DNA from: a virus
Virus record (IMG/VR): IMGVR_UViG_3300025168_000252
Coordinates: 1 to 37,078 of that record
DNA: 37,078 bases
Reading direction: 5' to 3' (one strand)
Part shown: positions 23,717-34,349 of the stretch, in pieces
Layout of the letters: every line of letters starts with the position of its first letter
Numbering within the stretch: the first letter of the stretch is position 1
Notes under the pieces: model-generated
Databases searched by the model: none
What the model was told of the DNA's origin: nothing
Seen by the model: only the letters and a program-made list of their open reading frames with translations
Program-made: the position numbers and the translations under genes

Positions 23717-26700
23717 ATGTCTACGCAATGGAATCCAAACGAATCTAATTCGGTACAGCTAGATGACGGAACAGTTGTTGAAATTCCTGTTGGTATTTCT
23801 GCAGCGCAAGCTTATAAATTTCTTGTAGAAGCAGGAAGAATTACACCATCTGAGTTGCCCGAAGAAGAAGAAAAGAGCGGGTTTTTTCCCGGCATATCTT
23901 CTAGCATTGAAAATATTAAAGGTACATTTACAGGCGCTTTGCCCGCAACGGCGGCAGGTCTGGAAATTACAGGCACCGAAGATCAAAGGCGTAAATATCT
24001 TGAGTCTTCTCAAGCAATTTACGAAGCATCTAGAGAAGCTCAAATGGAAAAGCTTCCTGATCCTGCATCTGTAGATAGTATTAAAGAAGCTTATGAAGAT
24101 GGTGGTGCTTGGGATGCTCTTTCTGAAACGTGGGATTTTTCAAAAGAAGCAGTAGGGCAACAGGTTCCTATCTTTGGTGGCCTTATGGCTGCTCAAAAGC
24201 TAGGTGGAAGCAAGCTTGTTTCTAACAGTTTAATTGGTAGAGCCGGTACTGCTTTGCTGGGAAGAGCTATCCCTGCTGCTGTAGCTCCTTATGTGGCTGC
24301 AAGTTTTTCAAATCCATGGACAGGAGCAGCCGCTGCGCTGGCCCTTTCTGCTGCCTTTGCTTATTCCAGCATGTTGAGAGACAACGCAGAGTCTGCTGAA
24401 GACCTTGAAGACATTAAGGTTCTTCGTGCAGCAACTGCTGCTGCTCCACATGCAGCTATGGAATATCTAGGCTTTGCTATGACGGGTGCTTTTGGTCCGC
24501 TCAAGCAACAACTAGCCGCAGCCACACTTAAAGACACCTTAGCCGGAGCATCTACGGCTGCGGGTCGAAGTGCTTGGGGAGCTGCAGGGAAACAAGCTGC
24601 TAAGTCTCTTACTGAATTCCCTACTGAACTGGCACAAACAGTAATTGAAAGGGCTCAAGCGGGTGAGTCTATTAGTCTTTCTGATGCTGATTTTGTAAAT
24701 GAAATGATCAATGTTGCTGCTGCGACTGCGCCAGTTGTGGGTGTATTTGGCGGGTACGGTGGTTACCGTTCTTATAAGAACGAAAAAAGTAACAAGAAAG
24801 AGTTTGATAAGAAAACCGATCTTGAAAAAGCACACCGAGCAAGTGTTGCTGAAGCCAGAAGAATTACAATTGAAAAGCAAGAGGCCAATGCGCGGAGGAT
24901 TGCGGATGAAGGCGTTGCTCGTTACGAGGCTGCAGTAGGATTAGCTAACGCAAGAGATGAGGGGATCGCTCGCCAAGTAGAGCGGATGTCTGAAAGAACT
25001 CCAGTTGAGTATGCAGACATTGTGGAAGCATTGGATTCTCGCGGTGTAACTCCAGACAATGTTTTTAACTCTGGAACTGCAGCTTTTATATTTAGAAATA
25101 CAGATGGAAAAGTAAAGAGCTTGCATCAACTTAAAGATAGTCTTTCTTTATCTAAAGCGGAGAGAGATCAGAGAGCTAAGTATAGGCGTAGGATTTACTC
25201 AATTCTTAGCGGTATGGGATCCTTTGAATATGTTGGTGCAAACAAAGACGCACCGCTTACGTTTAACCAGTACACAACAAAACAATTTGACGATGTATTA
25301 AAAGCTACAAGAAAGTTTAAAGGAAAAGCTGAAGGTACACGAATTAATCAAAACAATATTCGCAAGATACTTAAGATGGGAAACTCTGGAGTTGAGCAAA
25401 ATATTGCTTCTGCTATCAAAAAAGATCTTAAGCTTGATGGTTACTCTGAAACAAGTGGAAGCGTTCAGGTAGCAAGAAACCCTGGCTACACTGAAATTCA
25501 ATACAGAGAAATTATGGATCGGGCTAGAGAAAAGGGTCGGATTAGTCAAGAGTTATATGAGCAAGTCACAAACAATTATGGACGAGAATACTATACGCAG
25601 TTTATTCAGGATGTTTCAGTAAGGGGTGGCCTTGACCCCGTTCAGGCAAAGAAAAACATTTACATTCCTATGCGAGCCCAAAAGGGAATTGGTTATGTAG
25701 ACGTTGAAGTGGAGCCTGACACTCCTGGGTTTTTCATTCGACATGAAGGAGAAATTGTAGCTGGAGCGACTACGCGATCTATGGCTGAATCTGTTGTTAG
25801 TTCACTTGAACACAGAAGTCGATCTTATACAGTAACTAAAAACGGTAAAAAGTTTAAGACTTTTAAAAATAAATCTTGGGCAGATCAAATTTCTAAAAAC
25901 GAATCTAAAATAAATCCTGATGATGTCTTTGATGTTGTTACGAATCCTGTCGCGACATTTAACATTGATAAGACTAAGACTACCGGGTTTAAAGTAGTTG
26001 AAAGATTTAGAGATGATGAAGGCAACGTAAAAGATATTTATGAAGATTCCTTTGCGCCAACTAGAGAAATAGCAGAAGGCAGGAAGGAAGTTAGGGAGTC
26101 TGAATACAGCGTAGGCGAATCCGCATGGGATCGAAGGGCTGACAAGAGAAGAGAGCAGGCTATGCAAGATCTTTTCTACGGCCCCCGAGAGCGTGGTCTT
26201 TATCAAGATCCTGTTCTTGAAGATTTTGTTCCCAGGGAACCAGAATTTACTGAGCAAGAAGTAAAGATTATAGACCTTATCGACGCTCAGCTTAAGGATT
26301 TGGGTGTAAGTGATTTTAGAGGAAAGGTAGAAAAAAATATTCGCACCGGAGACAGGTCAGCAGCCGGTGAATTTTCTGCTCTTTTTAAGACAATTTCTGT
26401 TGCTTTGGATCAGTTTGGAAACGCACAGACAGATGCTGAGATTGATCAAGTACTAAAAGAAGTCGTAGACCATGAAGTTATTCATGCAATGAGAGAGCTT
26501 GATTTGTTTTCTCAGAACGAATGGCTTGCTCTTACAAGAAGTGTTTCAAGAATCAAAATTCCAAAGGATCTTCGCAATCGAAACAGAGAACTCTTTAGCG
26601 AAGACACAACGTTTCTTGAGTGGGCAGAAAAAAATTACGATGGGATTCCCAGAGTTGAAGCTCTGAAGAATAGAAAAAATCCTGATGAATATTGGGATTA

Positions 26701-29700
26701 CATTCTTGAAGAGGCTGTAGCTGAACTGCATTCTTCATACAAAAACTCTCCCGAAGTTTCTGATCAGATAGATGGAACTTCTGAAAGTTTGCTTGATAAG
26801 GTGAGGCGTTTCTTTGAGCGCGTTTACAACTCTGTTACAGGAGTTGGTTACGGAGACGCGGGCGATGTGTTTGCTGCGATTGGCAAGGGTACAATCGGTG
26901 GACGGAAGCGGGGAGAAATTCGCACGTTCAAGACTGGCCCTAAGTATGCCAGCGTAGATCAGTTGGCTAGGCCAAGATCGGAAAGGGAAAGAAGAGATTC
27001 TGACCTTAACGAAACTCGCGGTGGCGTTGCGGTAAATGTAGAAGAAGACGAGACTAAGAAATCTCTTGTTCCCCCTCCACTTAAGTACAATTCAAGCGTT
27101 CAGATCAACGGAGACTGGTCGGACATGATATTGAACAGGGAAAAGACTGTTGAAACTTCCGCGCAGTCTATGGTCAAGAACGGTGGCGCTCCGGGATGGG
27201 TCTTATTGAGGAACGAAACTGGTCAATCTTCTGGAGCAGCTTTACTCGGAAGGCGTTTTGAATATAAATCTAAAGATGAGTTTGATTCTGACTTTGAACG
27301 GCATAAAGTTTCTTCTTCAAATGAGTTTGCTTTTGGTAAAAGAAACAGAACCTACGGTTATCCAGTAGAAGATGTGGTTCGTTTTGAAGATCCCGTGCCT
27401 GTCAATACTCCCAGGGGACAGAACAGAAAGAAGAACCTTACCTATTCTGTTATTCCTAACATTGACATTGAGGGAAGTCGTTATTCCCTGTCTCGTAACC
27501 CCGCGACATTCGATGAAGGTACAGGACTTTGGAGTGATGGCGACTTTACTTTCGTTGAAGAATCCGTAAATTCAAATCACTTGATCGAAAGCCAAGACCA
27601 AATACCGACATTAGAAGACTTAAATTTTCAGTCCGGTTTGCTTACTGCAAAGGGAGAACAAGCAAAGCCTCGCTTTACCGGGAAGGTTATGGGTCAGGAT
27701 ATTGACCGGAAGGGAATCGTTGGTAAAACGGTTAGGCTTCGTATAGACATTCCATTTTTTAACAGTTGGAAATCTCAAGACGGCAGAGGTAAATACGTTG
27801 TCACCATACATGACGACAAGACAAAGTCTGGTAAGTATGTAGAGTTTCGCCAAGAAGCGGCATCGTCTCCCGGCGCGGTCATTGGTTACGACTCTATCGC
27901 TCGCTTGTCCGGGCCTGTTCGCTTTGGCTCCAACGGAAAAAAAGCCGCGAAGATATTGAAGGAAGGTGATTCTAAAAACCCCATAGCTGCTGTTGAAGGG
28001 GAGTACATTCAGGATCAATCTATACCGGAAGATATAGATAGTTGGACTCCGGTCGGTTACGACCCCCACAAAGCTACATTCTTTTACGACAAGAGAACAG
28101 GTGATGAAATTATATCTGGACAAGATGCAATTTCTATTGGCAACACTGTGTTTGTAAAAAACGTAGACCCGTGGAATGAAGAAACTTTTCAAAAGTATTC
28201 TGAAGGGTTAAAAATACCGAATCTTTTCCGTCAGCGAAGAAATGTAATGCGCGATCAGGCCGAATGGCGCGAGTATACAGCTTCAATGCGCGAAGCTGGC
28301 GAGGATTTTACTGCATCACTGCCGGAACCCAACGAACAATTTGGTCAGGAGTTTCTTGAGGAAACGCTGGAACAAACGCCGGGTTTCATACCTCGTATTA
28401 GCTCAAGGCCAGAAAAGAATTTGAATCTTCGTCCCGATCTGGATGACCGAAGAGAGCTTAGGCAGAGGTCTATTGATATAGCTAATGGCGTTATTGATCC
28501 TGTTAAATTTTCTCTTGCAGACAAAGAAAACAGCAACCCCAGAAGGCGAAGGCGCTCTGGAAATCTTTCATACGAAGAGCTTAAGGCTAGGACTGTACCC
28601 GAAAGAACAGAGAAAACTTTTATTGATTACATAAAAGAAATATGGCAAGAAAAAAGCTTGGCTATGTTTAGGCAAAAGTTTATTGACAAGTACGATTCGA
28701 TTGCCAAGTTGTCAAAAAGGGCAGCGGCTAAACGAATGGAGCGTGGCGATGATCACATGTTGCTTGCTAATGTAAACGCTGCCTCTGCTGCTTATCTTTC
28801 GGAGAACGCACAAGGTGTGGTTGCTGAATCAATTACTTCGGGGCAACCCGTATACAGTGGGGGAATCGTAAGGGTTGATTACGAAAAGCCCGGTGTATTT
28901 GAGATACTGAAAGATGTTTATCAGCAGGGATTTCTTGAAGACTTTCATCTTTGGGTAATGTCTAAACGATCTCACAGGCTTGGAAAAAATAACAAGTTAA
29001 CGCCTGTTGCTGAGAAAGACATTGCGGAAATTGAAGCTTACATTGATAGCCAGCCCGGTATGCGGGAACTTTTTGAAAGAACTAACGAACAGTATCAAGA
29101 ATGGAATGAAAACCTTGTAAACTTTCTTCGCGACACAGGCGTTATTGATGAGCGATTGGGAGAAGTTCTTAAGTCTTACGGAGACTATGTTCCCTTTTAC
29201 AAGCAGTATGAGGGTGAAGCATACGACGACGAGTCAAGCGCATTAAGTCAATTGATTGGTCAAAGCATTGATCAAATGAAAGAAACAATTGATCCCAGAA
29301 CAGGTGAAACAATCATAGGTGAAGCGCCTATTGGTGGAAGAGATGATGCGCCTAACTCTATGTTTGGATCTTTAGTTGGTGTCAAACCTCCTAAGAGGTT
29401 AAGGAAAGAAGGCAGCGACGAGATGGTTGTGCCGATGCTTGAAGGAATCATGAGAAATCTTCAGGCGGCTGTAAGCTCCGGTGCAAAAAACATTGCTGCA
29501 CAAAGAACCTTGCGGGATGCTTTGGTGTTTGGGGATGACATTGCCGTTAAGCTTGACAAGAAGTCTGACGCTGAGTTTGCCAGTGATGTTGTGACTATTC
29601 GCGAGAACGGGGTTGACCAACACTACCAGCTTAAAGACAAGTTGTTGTTTGATTCTTTGAGCGGAATGATGGAGGGTAAACTTCCTTGGCTTAGTTTCTT

Positions 29701-31366
29701 TTCTTTGCCTTCTGACGTTCTTAGGAATCTTGTTACTAGGTCTCCTGACTTTATCATGGCAAACCTTATGAGAGATAGTATCTCTACATGGGTTACTAGC
29801 GGATCTAACATGACTCCTATGGTCGGTACATTCAGCAACTTTTTCAAGGGAGGCGTTAGCGCGAGCAAAAATCAAGATCCTTCCATGGTTAGCTTGTTAA
29901 GTTCAGGTGTCATTGGTGGGTATGATAACTCTCGGTATCCCAAGGATCTTCAAAAGACATTCGATAAGAGAATGCGAGAAGAAGGACTAACTGTATCTGG
30001 AAAGAAGCGCGGCTTGACAGATAAGGCTGTGTTTAACACGATGCAGAAACTTTGGGATTGGTCTGGCGATGTAACTACGAAATCAGATGCAGCTACAAGG
30101 ATGGCTGTGTACGAAGACGTATACAAGAACATCCTTAACAAGGGACACACCAGAGAAGAAGCGGAAGCTGAGGCTATTTTCCAAGCACAAGAAGTAATTA
30201 ACTTTTCAAGGCGTGGTAATTCGGGAATAGCAAGAGTTGTTACGGCAGCAATTCCGTTCCTGAATGCAAGGGTTCAGGGCTTGGATGTTTTGTGGAGGGC
30301 AGGTAGAGGCAATTATTCTTCGGATTATTCCAAAGCTGGACAGAAATCTTCCATGTATTCTTTCTTAGGTCGCGGAAGCATGTTGGCTGCTATTACTGGA
30401 ATGTACGCCCTCATGGCTCACGATGAAGATGATTGGCTTTCAGCTAGCTCTGCAGAGCAAGACGATAACTGGATTATTCCGGGCTATGGAGTTGTTCCGG
30501 GCTTTAAGATTCCTATTCCGTTTGAAATCGGAATTTTATTTAAAGTAGTTCCGGAACGATTGATGAGAGCTTCTTTGTCCGGTAAAAATTATTTGGGTGT
30601 AGACATACCCGAAGGAGGCAAAACGGACTGGAGACAAGCTGGCAATGCACTTTCAAGGGGTGTGATTAGTTCTTTGAAACTAAATCCTTTTGAAGCTCAA
30701 GTAACAAAGCCCTTTTTAGAGTCGTATGTAAACTATTCTTTCTTTACCGGACAACCCATTGTCCCCATGTATATGGAAGACAGGTTGCCTGAGCAACGAA
30801 AGAGAAATGGCACAAATGCTATGGCCATTGCTCTTGGTGAAACATTTGGCGCTTCACCGCTTAAGATAGAACATATTATGCGCGGCTATACGGGAACCGT
30901 AGGTTCTTGGATACTTTTTGCAAGCGACCACGCAATTAGAAGTATGAGCAACATGCCAGCTAAGCCTGCTTTAAGGATTGACCAATGGCCTTTGCTTAAA
31001 AGATTCTTACAGACAGACTTGGGATCACAAGGACAGCTTGGTAATTTTTATGAGTTCAGAAAGGAAACGAAAAAGTTTGTAAACTCATTGAATCAAGCAA
31101 TAGAAGAAGGCGATGTAGAAACTCAACAGAAAATTCTTGAAAGATATCCACAGGTCGAAGGCATACAAAAATATATGAATGAAATAGATACTGAATTGGG
31201 TAAATTAAGAAATTACCAATCAGAAGTTTATTTAAGTGATATGTCCCCGGAAAAGAAACTTGAGATCATGAACAAAATAGATGAGCAAAGAAAAATAATA
31301 ACGAGAGATGTAAACAAACTAAGATCAAAGATGGACTTGCCGTTTAACCCATTGGCTGATTTTTAA
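23717..31366 (+). CDS. Giant polyvalent protein with HExxH peptidase-like and ASCH-like domains
   Basis: This 2549-aa protein takes one fifth of the window. Seen: hydrophobic Ala/Gly-rich segments near residues 175-220 and 330-355. A zinc-peptidase signature DHEVIHAM follows, with His919, Glu920 and His923, and a downstream ILEEAVAELH glutamate cluster (E998/E999/E1003) that could give the third ligand, as in gluzincins. An ASCH-like fold is suggested at about 1125-1235 (GDWSDMILNREKTVE, E1142-E1146; then YGYPVEDVVRFEDPVPV). A KATFFYDKRTG motif near 1450 and a C-terminal helical LPD38-like part (about 2009 onward, MRDSISTWVTSG) resemble phage polyvalent proteins. It probably enters the cell with the DNA and counters host defence. 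Domain calls are by eye. Confidence 0.6.
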   Translation: MSTQWNPNESNSVQLDDGTVVEIPVGISAAQAYKFLVEAGRITPSELPEEEEKSGFFPGISSSIENIKGTFTGALPATAAGLEITGTEDQRRKYLESSQAIYEASREAQMEKLPDPASVDSIKEAYEDGGAWDALSETWDFSKEAVGQQVPIFGGLMAAQKLGGSKLVSNSLIGRAGTALLGRAIPAAVAPYVAASFSNPWTGAAAALALSAAFAYSSMLRDNAESAEDLEDIKVLRAATAAAPHAAMEYLGFAMTGAFGPLKQQLAAATLKDTLAGASTAAGRSAWGAAGKQAAKSLTEFPTELAQTVIERAQAGESISLSDADFVNEMINVAAATAPVVGVFGGYGGYRSYKNEKSNKKEFDKKTDLEKAHRASVAEARRITIEKQEANARRIADEGVARYEAAVGLANARDEGIARQVERMSERTPVEYADIVEALDSRGVTPDNVFNSGTAAFIFRNTDGKVKSLHQLKDSLSLSKAERDQRAKYRRRIYSILSGMGSFEYVGANKDAPLTFNQYTTKQFDDVLKATRKFKGKAEGTRINQNNIRKILKMGNSGVEQNIASAIKKDLKLDGYSETSGSVQVARNPGYTEIQYREIMDRAREKGRISQELYEQVTNNYGREYYTQFIQDVSVRGGLDPVQAKKNIYIPMRAQKGIGYVDVEVEPDTPGFFIRHEGEIVAGATTRSMAESVVSSLEHRSRSYTVTKNGKKFKTFKNKSWADQISKNESKINPDDVFDVVTNPVATFNIDKTKTTGFKVVERFRDDEGNVKDIYEDSFAPTREIAEGRKEVRESEYSVGESAWDRRADKRREQAMQDLFYGPRERGLYQDPVLEDFVPREPEFTEQEVKIIDLIDAQLKDLGVSDFRGKVEKNIRTGDRSAAGEFSALFKTISVALDQFGNAQTDAEIDQVLKEVVDHEVIHAMRELDLFSQNEWLALTRSVSRIKIPKDLRNRNRELFSEDTTFLEWAEKNYDGIPRVEALKNRKNPDEYWDYILEEAVAELHSSYKNSPEVSDQIDGTSESLLDKVRRFFERVYNSVTGVGYGDAGDVFAAIGKGTIGGRKRGEIRTFKTGPKYASVDQLARPRSERERRDSDLNETRGGVAVNVEEDETKKSLVPPPLKYNSSVQINGDWSDMILNREKTVETSAQSMVKNGGAPGWVLLRNETGQSSGAALLGRRFEYKSKDEFDSDFERHKVSSSNEFAFGKRNRTYGYPVEDVVRFEDPVPVNTPRGQNRKKNLTYSVIPNIDIEGSRYSLSRNPATFDEGTGLWSDGDFTFVEESVNSNHLIESQDQIPTLEDLNFQSGLLTAKGEQAKPRFTGKVMGQDIDRKGIVGKTVRLRIDIPFFNSWKSQDGRGKYVVTIHDDKTKSGKYVEFRQEAASSPGAVIGYDSIARLSGPVRFGSNGKKAAKILKEGDSKNPIAAVEGEYIQDQSIPEDIDSWTPVGYDPHKATFFYDKRTGDEIISGQDAISIGNTVFVKNVDPWNEETFQKYSEGLKIPNLFRQRRNVMRDQAEWREYTASMREAGEDFTASLPEPNEQFGQEFLEETLEQTPGFIPRISSRPEKNLNLRPDLDDRRELRQRSIDIANGVIDPVKFSLADKENSNPRRRRRSGNLSYEELKARTVPERTEKTFIDYIKEIWQEKSLAMFRQKFIDKYDSIAKLSKRAAAKRMERGDDHMLLANVNAASAAYLSENAQGVVAESITSGQPVYSGGIVRVDYEKPGVFEILKDVYQQGFLEDFHLWVMSKRSHRLGKNNKLTPVAEKDIAEIEAYIDSQPGMRELFERTNEQYQEWNENLVNFLRDTGVIDERLGEVLKSYGDYVPFYKQYEGEAYDDESSALSQLIGQSIDQMKETIDPRTGETIIGEAPIGGRDDAPNSMFGSLVGVKPPKRLRKEGSDEMVVPMLEGIMRNLQAAVSSGAKNIAAQRTLRDALVFGDDIAVKLDKKSDAEFASDVVTIRENGVDQHYQLKDKLLFDSLSGMMEGKLPWLSFFSLPSDVLRNLVTRSPDFIMANLMRDSISTWVTSGSNMTPMVGTFSNFFKGGVSASKNQDPSMVSLLSSGVIGGYDNSRYPKDLQKTFDKRMREEGLTVSGKKRGLTDKAVFNTMQKLWDWSGDVTTKSDAATRMAVYEDVYKNILNKGHTREEAEAEAIFQAQEVINFSRRGNSGIARVVTAAIPFLNARVQGLDVLWRAGRGNYSSDYSKAGQKSSMYSFLGRGSMLAAITGMYALMAHDEDDWLSASSAEQDDNWIIPGYGVVPGFKIPIPFEIGILFKVVPERLMRASLSGKNYLGVDIPEGGKTDWRQAGNALSRGVISSLKLNPFEAQVTKPFLESYVNYSFFTGQPIVPMYMEDRLPEQRKRNGTNAMAIALGETFGASPLKIEHIMRGYTGTVGSWILFASDHAIRSMSNMPAKPALRIDQWPLLKRFLQTDLGSQGQLGNFYEFRKETKKFVNSLNQAIEEGDVETQQKILERYPQVEGIQKYMNEIDTELGKLRNYQSEVYLSDMSPEKKLEIMNKIDEQRKIITRDVNKLRSKMDLPFNPLADF

Positions 31367-31377
31367 AAGGAGAACAA

Positions 31378-31566
31378 ATGATTAATTGGATTACGTTGAA
31401 CATTGGAGAAGTTATTCAAATCATCACTCAGGTGGTTGGAGTCTTTGCAATTATTGCAGCTTGGACACCTAACGTTGCAGACAATAAGGTTGCTGCCATG
31501 TTGCTTGAGGGCGTTAACTTTCTGGGTGCAAACCTAGGTAAGGCACGGAATGCACCGGACGCATAA
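31378..31566 (+). CDS. Small membrane protein, holin candidate
   Basis: This 62-aa protein is preceded by an AAGGAG site at 31367-31372. It has a hydrophobic stretch at residues 9-28 (IGEVIQIITQVVGVFAIIAA) and a second, weaker one around 39-51 (AAMLLEGVNFLGA). It resembles small MINWIT-type proteins I know from marine phages near lysis genes. Its position directly before the spanin pair suggests a holin or pinholin that times lysis. No endolysin was recognised nearby, so this role is an inference. The last stop base overlaps the next ATG (TAATG). Confidence 0.6.
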   Translation: MINWITLNIGEVIQIITQVVGVFAIIAAWTPNVADNKVAAMLLEGVNFLGANLGKARNAPDA

Positions 31567-31841
31567 TGATTGCATGGCTTGTAGTTGGATTGGTTATAGT
31601 TGTAATCTTTTTGATTGCCTTGAAGTTGTCTGGAAAGACAGCGGAAGAGTTGGGCCGATCTAATGAGAGGCACGATTACTTGGAGAAGGAAGTACAAAGC
31701 ATCAACATATTTGTGGAAGAGCTTTCAAATCCTCCTCCTGATCGCGCTGATCTTGCTTCTAGATGGTTGCGCCGCATCAAAGAAGCCAAGCGTAAGAACG
31801 ATTCCTCCGTGTCCGATACCGACAATGAAAGCTCTGATTGA
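31566..31841 (+). CDS. i-spanin (Rz-like)
   Basis: This 91-aa protein has an N-terminal membrane segment (residues 2-20, AWLVVGLVIVVIFLIALKL) followed by a charged helical tail (about 30-70), the layout of an inner-membrane spanin that spans the periplasm with its partner. It is shorter than classic Rz (about 150 aa). A second reading frame starting inside it encodes a lipoprotein of the o-spanin type, which is the strongest evidence for the call. Together they would fuse inner and outer membranes after cell-wall degradation in a Gram-negative host. Confidence 0.7.
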   Translation: MIAWLVVGLVIVVIFLIALKLSGKTAEELGRSNERHDYLEKEVQSINIFVEELSNPPPDRADLASRWLRRIKEAKRKNDSSVSDTDNESSD

Positions 31842-31935
31842 ACTTCAAGAAGGTTTAGTTCCGCATGGAGTAGAACAGTTTCTTTCGCGTATAGAAATTT
31901 ATTGTTCAGCTATAGATTCTGTAAGAGATGCGTGA
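31663..31935 (+). CDS. o-spanin lipoprotein (Rz1-like), overlapping the i-spanin
   Basis: This 90-aa reading frame overlaps the i-spanin gene by 179 bases in another frame and extends past its end. It has a hydrophobic stretch ILLLIALILLLDGC with a lipobox-like LDGC (Cys36), a Pro-containing region after it (IPPCPIPT), and an amphipathic tail. The ATG at 31663 gives a long basic N-region. A TTG at 31711 would give a more compact signal starting just before residues WKSFQ. Asp at position -2 of the lipobox is unusual. Overlapping frames are typical of Rz/Rz1 pairs. The start is the uncertain part. Confidence 0.65.
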   Translation: MRGTITWRRKYKASTYLWKSFQILLLIALILLLDGCAASKKPSVRTIPPCPIPTMKALIELQEGLVPHGVEQFLSRIEIYCSAIDSVRDA

Positions 31936-33725: not shown

Positions 33726-33994
33726 TGGAAAACGGTATACTACCTAAGGATCCTCCTGTTGAAGAAGCAATTAAAGCTCTTGAAATGGCTAGGGATTATA
33801 CGAATGCTGCCCTAGGCCAAATCAAGAGCAATGATGTTGGTGAATCTATTAGCGAAATGGTTCACATGACGTTGTATATGCAAACTTCAGACACTCTTAA
33901 CGGATTAAACCTTTGCATTGAAACTTTAATAGAGTCTGTCAAGAAAGATCAATTACCCACAACCCATCCTAACTTCTTGAACTTATTGGACTGA
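33725..33994 (+). CDS. Small helical acidic protein, last gene of the plus block
   Basis: This 89-aa protein starts one base inside the peptidase stop (TAATG) and is predicted all-helical (EEAIKALEMARDYTNAALGQ, SISEMVHMTLYMQT). No domain is recognised. Its 3' end overlaps the convergent minus-strand gene at 33949-34179 by 46 bases, with no terminator between the blocks. The function is unknown. Confidence 0.65.
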   Translation: MENGILPKDPPVEEAIKALEMARDYTNAALGQIKSNDVGESISEMVHMTLYMQTSDTLNGLNLCIETLIESVKKDQLPTTHPNFLNLLD

Positions 33995-34179
33995 TTGATT
34001 CCATAGCAAGCGCCTTTATATTCTCCCGGCTGAGTAATGCATACGCAATCTGGCGTGGCGCAAGTGCCATAGCAAGGGAGATCAGGGCAGTAGGCGCAGC
34101 GTGCAGTTGTGGCGTATCCCAAGGCCACTGACACCGAAAATACAAGTGCCATCAGAGTTATCTTTATAGATTGTTTCAT
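33949..34179 (-). CDS. Secreted seven-cysteine knottin-like peptide
   Basis: This 76-aa protein has a clear signal peptide (basic start MKQSIK, hydrophobic ITLMALVFSVSVALG, small residues about 23-27) and then a compact Cys-rich domain. The cysteines are at 28, 31, 36, 40, 45, 47 and 58, giving spacings 2-4-3-4-1-10. The last six follow C-x4-C-x3-C-x4-C-x1-C-x10-C, close to the spacing of inhibitor-cystine-knot peptides (for example, C-x4-C-x1-C near the end in plant albumin-1 and cyclotides). The tail is basic and Gly/Trp-containing. It would act in the periplasm or outside. Target unknown; the fold is inferred from spacing alone. An AAAGGA ribosome site precedes the ATG. Confidence 0.65.
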   Translation of the reverse strand: MKQSIKITLMALVFSVSVALGYATTARCAYCPDLPCYGTCATPDCVCITQPGEYKGACYGINQSNKFKKLGWVVGN

Positions 34180-34349
34180 TAGTTTTCCTTTAGAAAATTA
34201 GAGACAGCTATCCTGACTACTTCGGCGTTAGTTATATTGTTTTCGTCTGCGTATTTTTTGATTGTTTCTATATCTTTTTTAAGGAAAAGAACGTTGTAGT
34301 ATTGAGTTTCTCCTCCCAAACTGGTCTTCATATACTTAGCTCCGGGCAT
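34179..34349 (-). CDS. Ribbon-helix-helix (RHH) DNA-binding protein
   Basis: This 56-aa protein is read from ATG at 34349 (minus strand) to TAA ending at 34179, one base inside the next gene (TAATG). After an MPGAKYMKTSLGGETQ start, it shows the RHH pattern: a strand YYNVLFL, a helix KKDIETIKKYADENN, and a helix NAEVVRIAVSNFLKE with a T-N-A turn. RHH proteins bind DNA as dimers and often act as repressors. It lies directly before the Cys-rich gene and after DUF3310, and overlaps DUF3310 by 14 bases. A GAGG site precedes its ATG. It may control this operon; that is inference. Confidence 0.75.
   Translation of the reverse strand: MPGAKYMKTSLGGETQYYNVLFLKKDIETIKKYADENNITNAEVVRIAVSNFLKEN

What the first reader, a model, noticed from the sequence alone, without database searches (positions are those of the whole stretch)
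33949..34179. Phage gene for a secreted peptide with knottin-like cysteine spacing
The product has a signal peptide and seven cysteines at residues 28, 31, 36, 40, 45, 47 and 58. The last six follow C-x4-C-x3-C-x4-C-x1-C-x10-C, which is close to cystine-knot peptides such as albumin-1 or cyclotides and unusual for a phage. It lies at the end of the early/recombination operon, next to an RHH regulator. A secreted disulfide-rich phage protein could act on the host envelope, on competing phages, or on neighbouring cells. The cysteine pattern is seen; the fold and role are inferred.
Basis: partly seen in the sequence, partly recalled or inferred. Interest (0 to 1): 0.8.

Follow-up and report, generated by a model that had tools for sequence, protein, structure and literature searches.

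The report
Phage-encoded exported seven-cysteine miniprotein
An uncultured phage carries a real, selected gene for a tiny exported protein with seven fixed cysteines, spaced as in the cystine-knot peptides of plants and animals; three relatives in other uncultured phages keep all seven cysteines, but whether it is really a knot, and what it does, is not shown.

Summary
The minus strand at 33949-34179 encodes a 76-residue protein with an N-terminal export signal and cysteines at 28, 31, 36, 40, 45, 47 and 58. It is a real gene: good ribosome site, start codon overlapping the stop of the upstream RHH-like gene, and dN/dS about 0.08 against its nearest relative. Scans of 2.9 million viral contigs gave three relatives. 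Two are syntenic (88% and 61% identical). One (43%) lies in a different phage and lacks the C-terminal tail. All keep the seven cysteines and a core CA[YW]C-x4-CYG[TS]C-x4-CVCI-x2-PGE-x2-G-x-C. No relative was found in 50,697 named phages, 72,556 plasmids, Pfam, PHROGs, NCBIfam or the PDB, nor in bacterial genomes by pattern scans. Two six-cysteine frames fit the knottin spacing, and the AlphaFold model (mature pLDDT 83) puts its strands at cysteines II, IV-V and VI, where a knottin has them. But that spacing is loose (6-11% of random 7-Cys peptides fit), no solved knottin matches significantly, and the disulfides could not be read. Best reading: an early-expressed, disulfide-stabilised effector in the host envelope, most plausibly blocking superinfection or modulating an envelope protein. 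Fold plausibly knottin-like; function inferred.

The parts
33949..34179 (-). Gene for the 76-aa exported seven-cysteine miniprotein
   Evidence: ORF and translation; purifying selection; homologs L001, L002, L068
34099..34179 (-). N-terminal export signal: basic MKQSIK then a hydrophobic core about 15 long (residues 7-21), no lipobox before Cys28; likely signal-peptidase-I site after A23 or A26 (inferred)
   Evidence: Kyte-Doolittle maximum 2.3-2.6 in all four members; h-region varies in sequence (6/18 identical to L002) while the hydrophobic character is kept
34000..34098 (-). Seven-cysteine core, residues 28-60: CAYCPDLPCYGTCATPDCVCITQPGEYKGACYG
   Evidence: 25/33 identical to L002; all Cys plus CYG, CVCI, PGE and G56 invariant in four members
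33952..33999 (-). C-terminal tail, residues 61-76, predicted helix plus short strand; absent from the L068 member, so not part of the conserved core
34186..34191 (-). Ribosome-binding site AAAGGA, six bases before the ATG
34179..34349 (-). Upstream RHH-like regulator gene; its TAA stop overlaps the ATG of the peptide gene (TAATG), suggesting translational coupling
   Evidence: weak PHROG transcriptional repressor match E 8e-4; syntenic in L001 and L002
33725..33994 (+). Convergent 89-codon gene whose end overlaps the last 46 bases of the peptide gene
   Evidence: same arrangement in L001, 15-base gap in L002

Best explanation
The gene makes a small protein that is sent across the inner membrane of the infected bacterium early in infection (Sec signal; inferred from sequence). 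Outside the cytoplasm its cysteines pair into about three disulfides holding a small three-stranded beta sheet, probably an inhibitor-cystine-knot-like fold using Cys 31 (or 28), 36, 40, 45, 47 and 58; the seventh cysteine is free or links two copies. The invariant hairpin loop (C-V-C-I-x-x-P-G-E-x-x-G-x-C) is the likely contact surface. It most likely binds an envelope or periplasmic target of the host to protect the infected cell from superinfecting phages or to modulate an envelope protein. Shown: real gene, export-type N-terminus, conserved cysteine core, occurrence in two phage lineages. Inferred: export in fact, expression time (from operon position), disulfides, knot, target, superinfection role. 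My split: exported disulfide-rich miniprotein 0.85; true cystine knot 0.45; superinfection or envelope-modulating role 0.3.
For: Purifying selection, dN/dS about 0.05 over residues 24-61. Seven invariant cysteines over four members down to 43% identity. Hydrophobic N-terminus kept while its sequence drifts. Mature model pLDDT 82.6, pTM 0.59, strands at residues 35-36, 45-49 and 56-60, i.e. at Cys II, IV-V and VI, as in the knottin cystine-stabilised beta-sheet described in PMC2984590. Two Cys frames fit the ICK spacing. Present in a different phage lineage (L068; its terminase matches named phages at only about 22-27% identity in the rows shown), again beside DNA-metabolism-type genes (read by eye), and absent at the syntenic place in the L010 relatives, which is how accessory interaction genes behave. 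Mature net charge -3 to +2, unlike a cationic membrane-killing peptide.
Against: No significant fold or family match. The best structural alignments (FlhA fragment, Z 2.3-3.4) are not knottins and are themselves insignificant. Seven cysteines is an odd number. The model rests on four sequences, and two of its five runs were below pLDDT 50. Nothing ties the gene directly to superinfection; no target or host is known.
Confidence: 0.35

Rival explanations
1. It is exported and disulfide-bonded but not a cystine knot: some other three-disulfide fold, perhaps a disulfide-linked dimer through the seventh cysteine.
For: Odd cysteine number, conserved in all members; no significant knottin match; an FlhA fragment is the best, though insignificant, alignment.
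Against: Strand positions and spacing both agree with the knottin pattern.
Confidence: 0.35
2. It is an exported disulfide-rich inhibitor of a periplasmic or secreted protease (knottins often are), protecting phage envelope proteins or setting lysis timing.
For: Compact cysteine scaffold with one strictly conserved loop (PGE); early operon; a lysis cassette with spanin-like genes lies about 2 kb away on the other strand.
Against: No match to any inhibitor family; no recognised inhibitory signature; no protease partner is linked.
Confidence: 0.17
3. It is released from the cell and acts on neighbouring cells, as a bacteriocin-like or anti-competitor peptide.
For: Signal sequence, disulfide-rich, small.
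Against: Mature charge near neutral to acidic; no immunity-like partner conserved beside it; release beyond the outer membrane before lysis would need another step.
Confidence: 0.1
4. It is a membrane-anchored or cytoplasmic metal-binding small protein (CxxC and CxC as zinc or Fe-S ligands) rather than a disulfide protein.
For: CxxC at 28-31 and CxC at 45-47 can bind metal; the N-terminus could be an uncleaved anchor (sequence).
Against: Export-type N-terminus directly before the cysteines in all members; no zinc-ribbon or ferredoxin family match above cut-off.
Confidence: 0.1
5. The RHH protein and the peptide form a toxin-antitoxin pair.
For: TAATG overlap of the two genes in the window.
Against: A different 115-codon gene separates them in L001; no RHH gene stands beside the L068 copy; a cytoplasmic antitoxin and an exported peptide would be in different compartments.
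Confidence: 0.03

Closest known systems
Knottins / inhibitor cystine knot miniproteins (KNOTTIN database, PMC2984590)
   Same: Six cysteines in ICK-compatible spacing including a C-x-C, signal peptide, small size, predicted strands at Cys II, V and VI
   Different: Seventh conserved cysteine, C-terminal helix-strand tail in three of four members, bacterial-virus origin, no sequence match to any knottin family; disulfide connectivity unknown
Plant albumin-1 (PA1b) and cyclotides
   Same: Run of loops ending in C-x4-C-x1-C (general knowledge of these families)
   Different: No Pfam match; other loop lengths differ; no evidence of cyclisation; no plant link
Baculovirus conotoxin-like proteins (knottin proteins of insect viruses; described in PMC7407490)
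   Same: A virus-encoded small knottin-type protein
   Different: Insect virus; no sequence relation found here
Exported phage superinfection-exclusion or lysis-control proteins (for example T4 RI and Sp, T5 Llp, phi80 Cor; general knowledge)
   Same: Small, exported or envelope-targeted phage accessory products
   Different: None is known to me as a seven-cysteine miniprotein; ours is not a lipoprotein (no lipobox)

Membership tests
Knottin / inhibitor cystine knot | Six cysteines with ICK loop lengths (about x3-7, x3-6, x0-5, x1-4, x4-10; ranges from general knowledge) | tested here: met
   Frames 28/36/40/45/47/58 and 31/36/40/45/47/58 both fit; but 6-11% of random seven-Cys placements fit too
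Knottin / inhibitor cystine knot | Disulfides I-IV, II-V, III-VI with one threaded through the ring of the other two | not testable with these tools
   Model coordinates are not given; needs mapping or NMR
Knottin / inhibitor cystine knot | Cystine-stabilised beta-sheet with strands at Cys II, V, VI | tested here: inconclusive
   Predicted strands at 35-36, 45-49, 56-60 agree; Foldseek hits to 6i31 and 8uwf are weak, E>3
Knottin / inhibitor cystine knot | Secretory signal before the cysteine domain | tested here: met
   Hydrophobic N-terminus in all four members; no signal-peptide predictor was available
Plant albumin-1 / cyclotide | Match to the family's sequence model | tested here: not met
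   No Pfam hit to either with E limit 10; HMMER's filters drop most hits above about 0.1
Bacterial lipoprotein (as in phage Llp/Cor-type exclusion proteins) | Lipobox directly before the first cysteine | tested here: not met
   TTAR-C in the window, KPAT-C in L068
Type II toxin-antitoxin with RHH antitoxin | Conserved adjacent partner gene | tested here: not met
   Separated by another gene in L001, RHH absent beside the L068 copy
Hepadnavirus surface antigen (Pfam vMSA, the only Pfam hit) | Score above the curated cut-off | tested here: not met
   16.9 and 14.1 bits against a cut-off of 29.1; read as chance similarity in a Cys-rich stretch

The most novel reading that the evidence does not exclude
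A first family of true cystine-knot miniproteins encoded by bacteriophages, exported into the infected host's envelope as an interaction effector and shared between distant phage lineages.
Probability: 0.35. Interest if true: 0.75.

Novelty: new variant of a known kind. Interest (0 to 1): 0.5.

Why it matters
Cystine knots are known mainly as plant and animal defence or venom peptides. A phage family with the same architecture would show that knottin-like scaffolds evolved, or travelled, in bacterial viruses, and would point to an undescribed way in which phages act on the host envelope. Even if not a knot, this is a small family of exported seven-cysteine phage proteins that none of the annotation libraries used here recognises.

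Tried and rejected
Pfam, PHROGs and NCBIfam scans: only sub-threshold noise. PDB sequence searches: nothing meaningful. tblastn against named phages with the full peptide, the L068 member and the core alone and against plasmids: no convincing relative. Bacterial genomes: a back-translated peptide scan and a cysteine-pattern scan of 84,980 species gave 62 pattern stretches; those whose translation showed the pattern were inspected by eye and look like low-complexity or out-of-frame stretches without a signal peptide. Profile searches of six related named phages and of the L005 and L007-L012 records gave no convincing member (three matches of 11.7 bits, E 0.005-0.007, in G005-G007 were judged noise; G007 was retested with the mature profile and gave none). 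Absence from the VIA-align lists is not taken as evidence. A random-placement check showed that the ICK spacing class alone is weak evidence. Paper searches found no phage-encoded knottin in the open library; absence there is not proof. The PADLOC library was not searched.

Full report
What is there. The minus strand of 33949-34179 encodes a 76-residue protein with Cys 28, 31, 36, 40, 45, 47 and 58; the plus strand of the same interval has stops. The start codon overlaps the TAA of the upstream RHH-like gene (TAATG) and is preceded by AAAGGA, so the gene is probably translationally coupled. It is the last gene of the leftward operon that holds the Sak annealing protein, a DUF968 protein, DUF3310 and the RHH-like protein. 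The convergent rightward operon overlaps its last 46 bases. Cysteine is 0.43% of residues in the other genes counted, so seven in 76 is not chance.

Is it a real gene? Yes. A pattern-and-tblastn scan of viral contigs found L001 (88% identical) and L002 (61%), both with conserved synteny. Between the window and L001 about half of synonymous sites differ but only 6% of non-synonymous ones; dN/dS is about 0.08 overall and 0.05 for residues 24-61. Scanning viral contigs for the cysteine pattern added L068, a member 43% identical, in a phage whose terminase has no close named relative; there the gene follows a 732-codon helicase/methyltransferase-looking gene and has no RHH neighbour (read by eye). 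Three more specific scans recovered the same three contigs. The four sequences share A-x-C-A-[YW]-C, C-Y-G-[TS]-C, C-V-C-I, P-G-E and G-x-C. The C-terminal tail (helix and strand in the model) is missing in L068, so the core ends shortly after Cys58.

How far does it spread? No convincing relative was found by tblastn in 50,697 named phages or 72,556 plasmids, and two pattern scans of 84,980 bacterial and archaeal species gave none either. The collection scans needed near-exact peptide or cysteine patterns, so members with other spacing could be missed. Related phages of the L010 group have a different small gene at the syntenic place. The window's capsid protein is 54-69% identical to those of phages from Pelagibacter, Roseobacter and freshwater cyanobacterial cultures; six of these records were searched with the mature profile and none has a detectable copy. 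The gene therefore looks like a patchily distributed accessory gene. The window's own host is unknown.

Is it exported? All four members begin with basic residues and a hydrophobic stretch (best 15-residue Kyte-Doolittle mean 2.3-2.6), followed by plausible signal-peptidase sites; there is no lipobox. Sequence in the first 18 residues drifts (6 of 18 identical with L002) while the cysteine core does not (25 of 33). No signal-peptide predictor was available, so cleavage is inferred.

Is it a knottin? Spacing: with Cys31 or Cys28 as the first, the six-cysteine frame fits the usual inhibitor-cystine-knot ranges (ranges from general knowledge), but 6-11% of random seven-cysteine arrangements would too; a narrower albumin/cyclotide-like frame arises in 0.6%. 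Model: AlphaFold on the mature parts of four sequences gave pLDDT 82.6 and pTM 0.59 for the best model, but two of the five were below 50. Strands fall at residues 35-36, 45-49 and 56-60, matching Cys II, IV-V and VI, where PMC2984590 places the knottin beta-sheet. Fold searches gave only weak matches, among them the knottins Evasin-3 (6i31; full-length model only) and Hc3a (8uwf), and an FlhA fragment with slightly better but still insignificant scores; viral models gave nothing significant. So a knottin-like fold is plausible, not shown. The seventh cysteine suggests a free thiol or a dimer.

What does it do? The best-supported part is: an exported-type, probably early, probably disulfide-stabilised miniprotein under purifying selection. 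From there I infer an interaction role in the host envelope; superinfection exclusion and modulation of envelope proteins are common jobs of such phage products (general knowledge). In HTVC023P-type pelagiphages, whose capsid is related to this one, phage-encoded Curli components were proposed to protect infected cells from competing viruses (PMC9599517), a parallel in kind only. Rivals are a protease inhibitor, a released anti-competitor peptide (less likely given near-neutral charge), a non-knot disulfide fold, and a metal-binding protein. A toxin-antitoxin pair with the RHH protein is disfavoured because the partnership is not conserved.

Verdict. Observation confirmed; interpretation partly supported. 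This is a new small family of exported seven-cysteine phage miniproteins with knottin-compatible architecture; the knot and the function need bench work.

Noticed in passing
window 31566-31841 and 31663-31935 (+): Two overlapping ORFs in different frames, one with an N-terminal membrane segment and one with a lipobox-like LLDGC, look like an embedded Rz/Rz1 spanin pair, after a 62-codon holin-like ORF at 31378-31566.
   Followed up: no
window 31366-31378 against L002:7572-7895: L002 has a 107-codon peptidase-like (M15-type endolysin-looking) gene between the giant protein and the holin-like gene; the window goes directly from one to the other.
   Followed up: no
window 23717-31366 (+): A 2549-residue protein, apparently a giant multi-domain virion or polyvalent protein.
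   Followed up: no
L001:4111-4458: A 115-codon gene, by eye GIY-YIG-like but without a Pfam match, lies between the RHH gene and the peptide gene.
   Followed up: partly
named phages OQ594354, OL906435, PP438419: Three phages reported from Synechococcus, Planktothrix and Planktothricoides have the same record length (65,014 bases) and the same capsid match (69.4%), so they may be one virus reported from three cultures.
   Followed up: no
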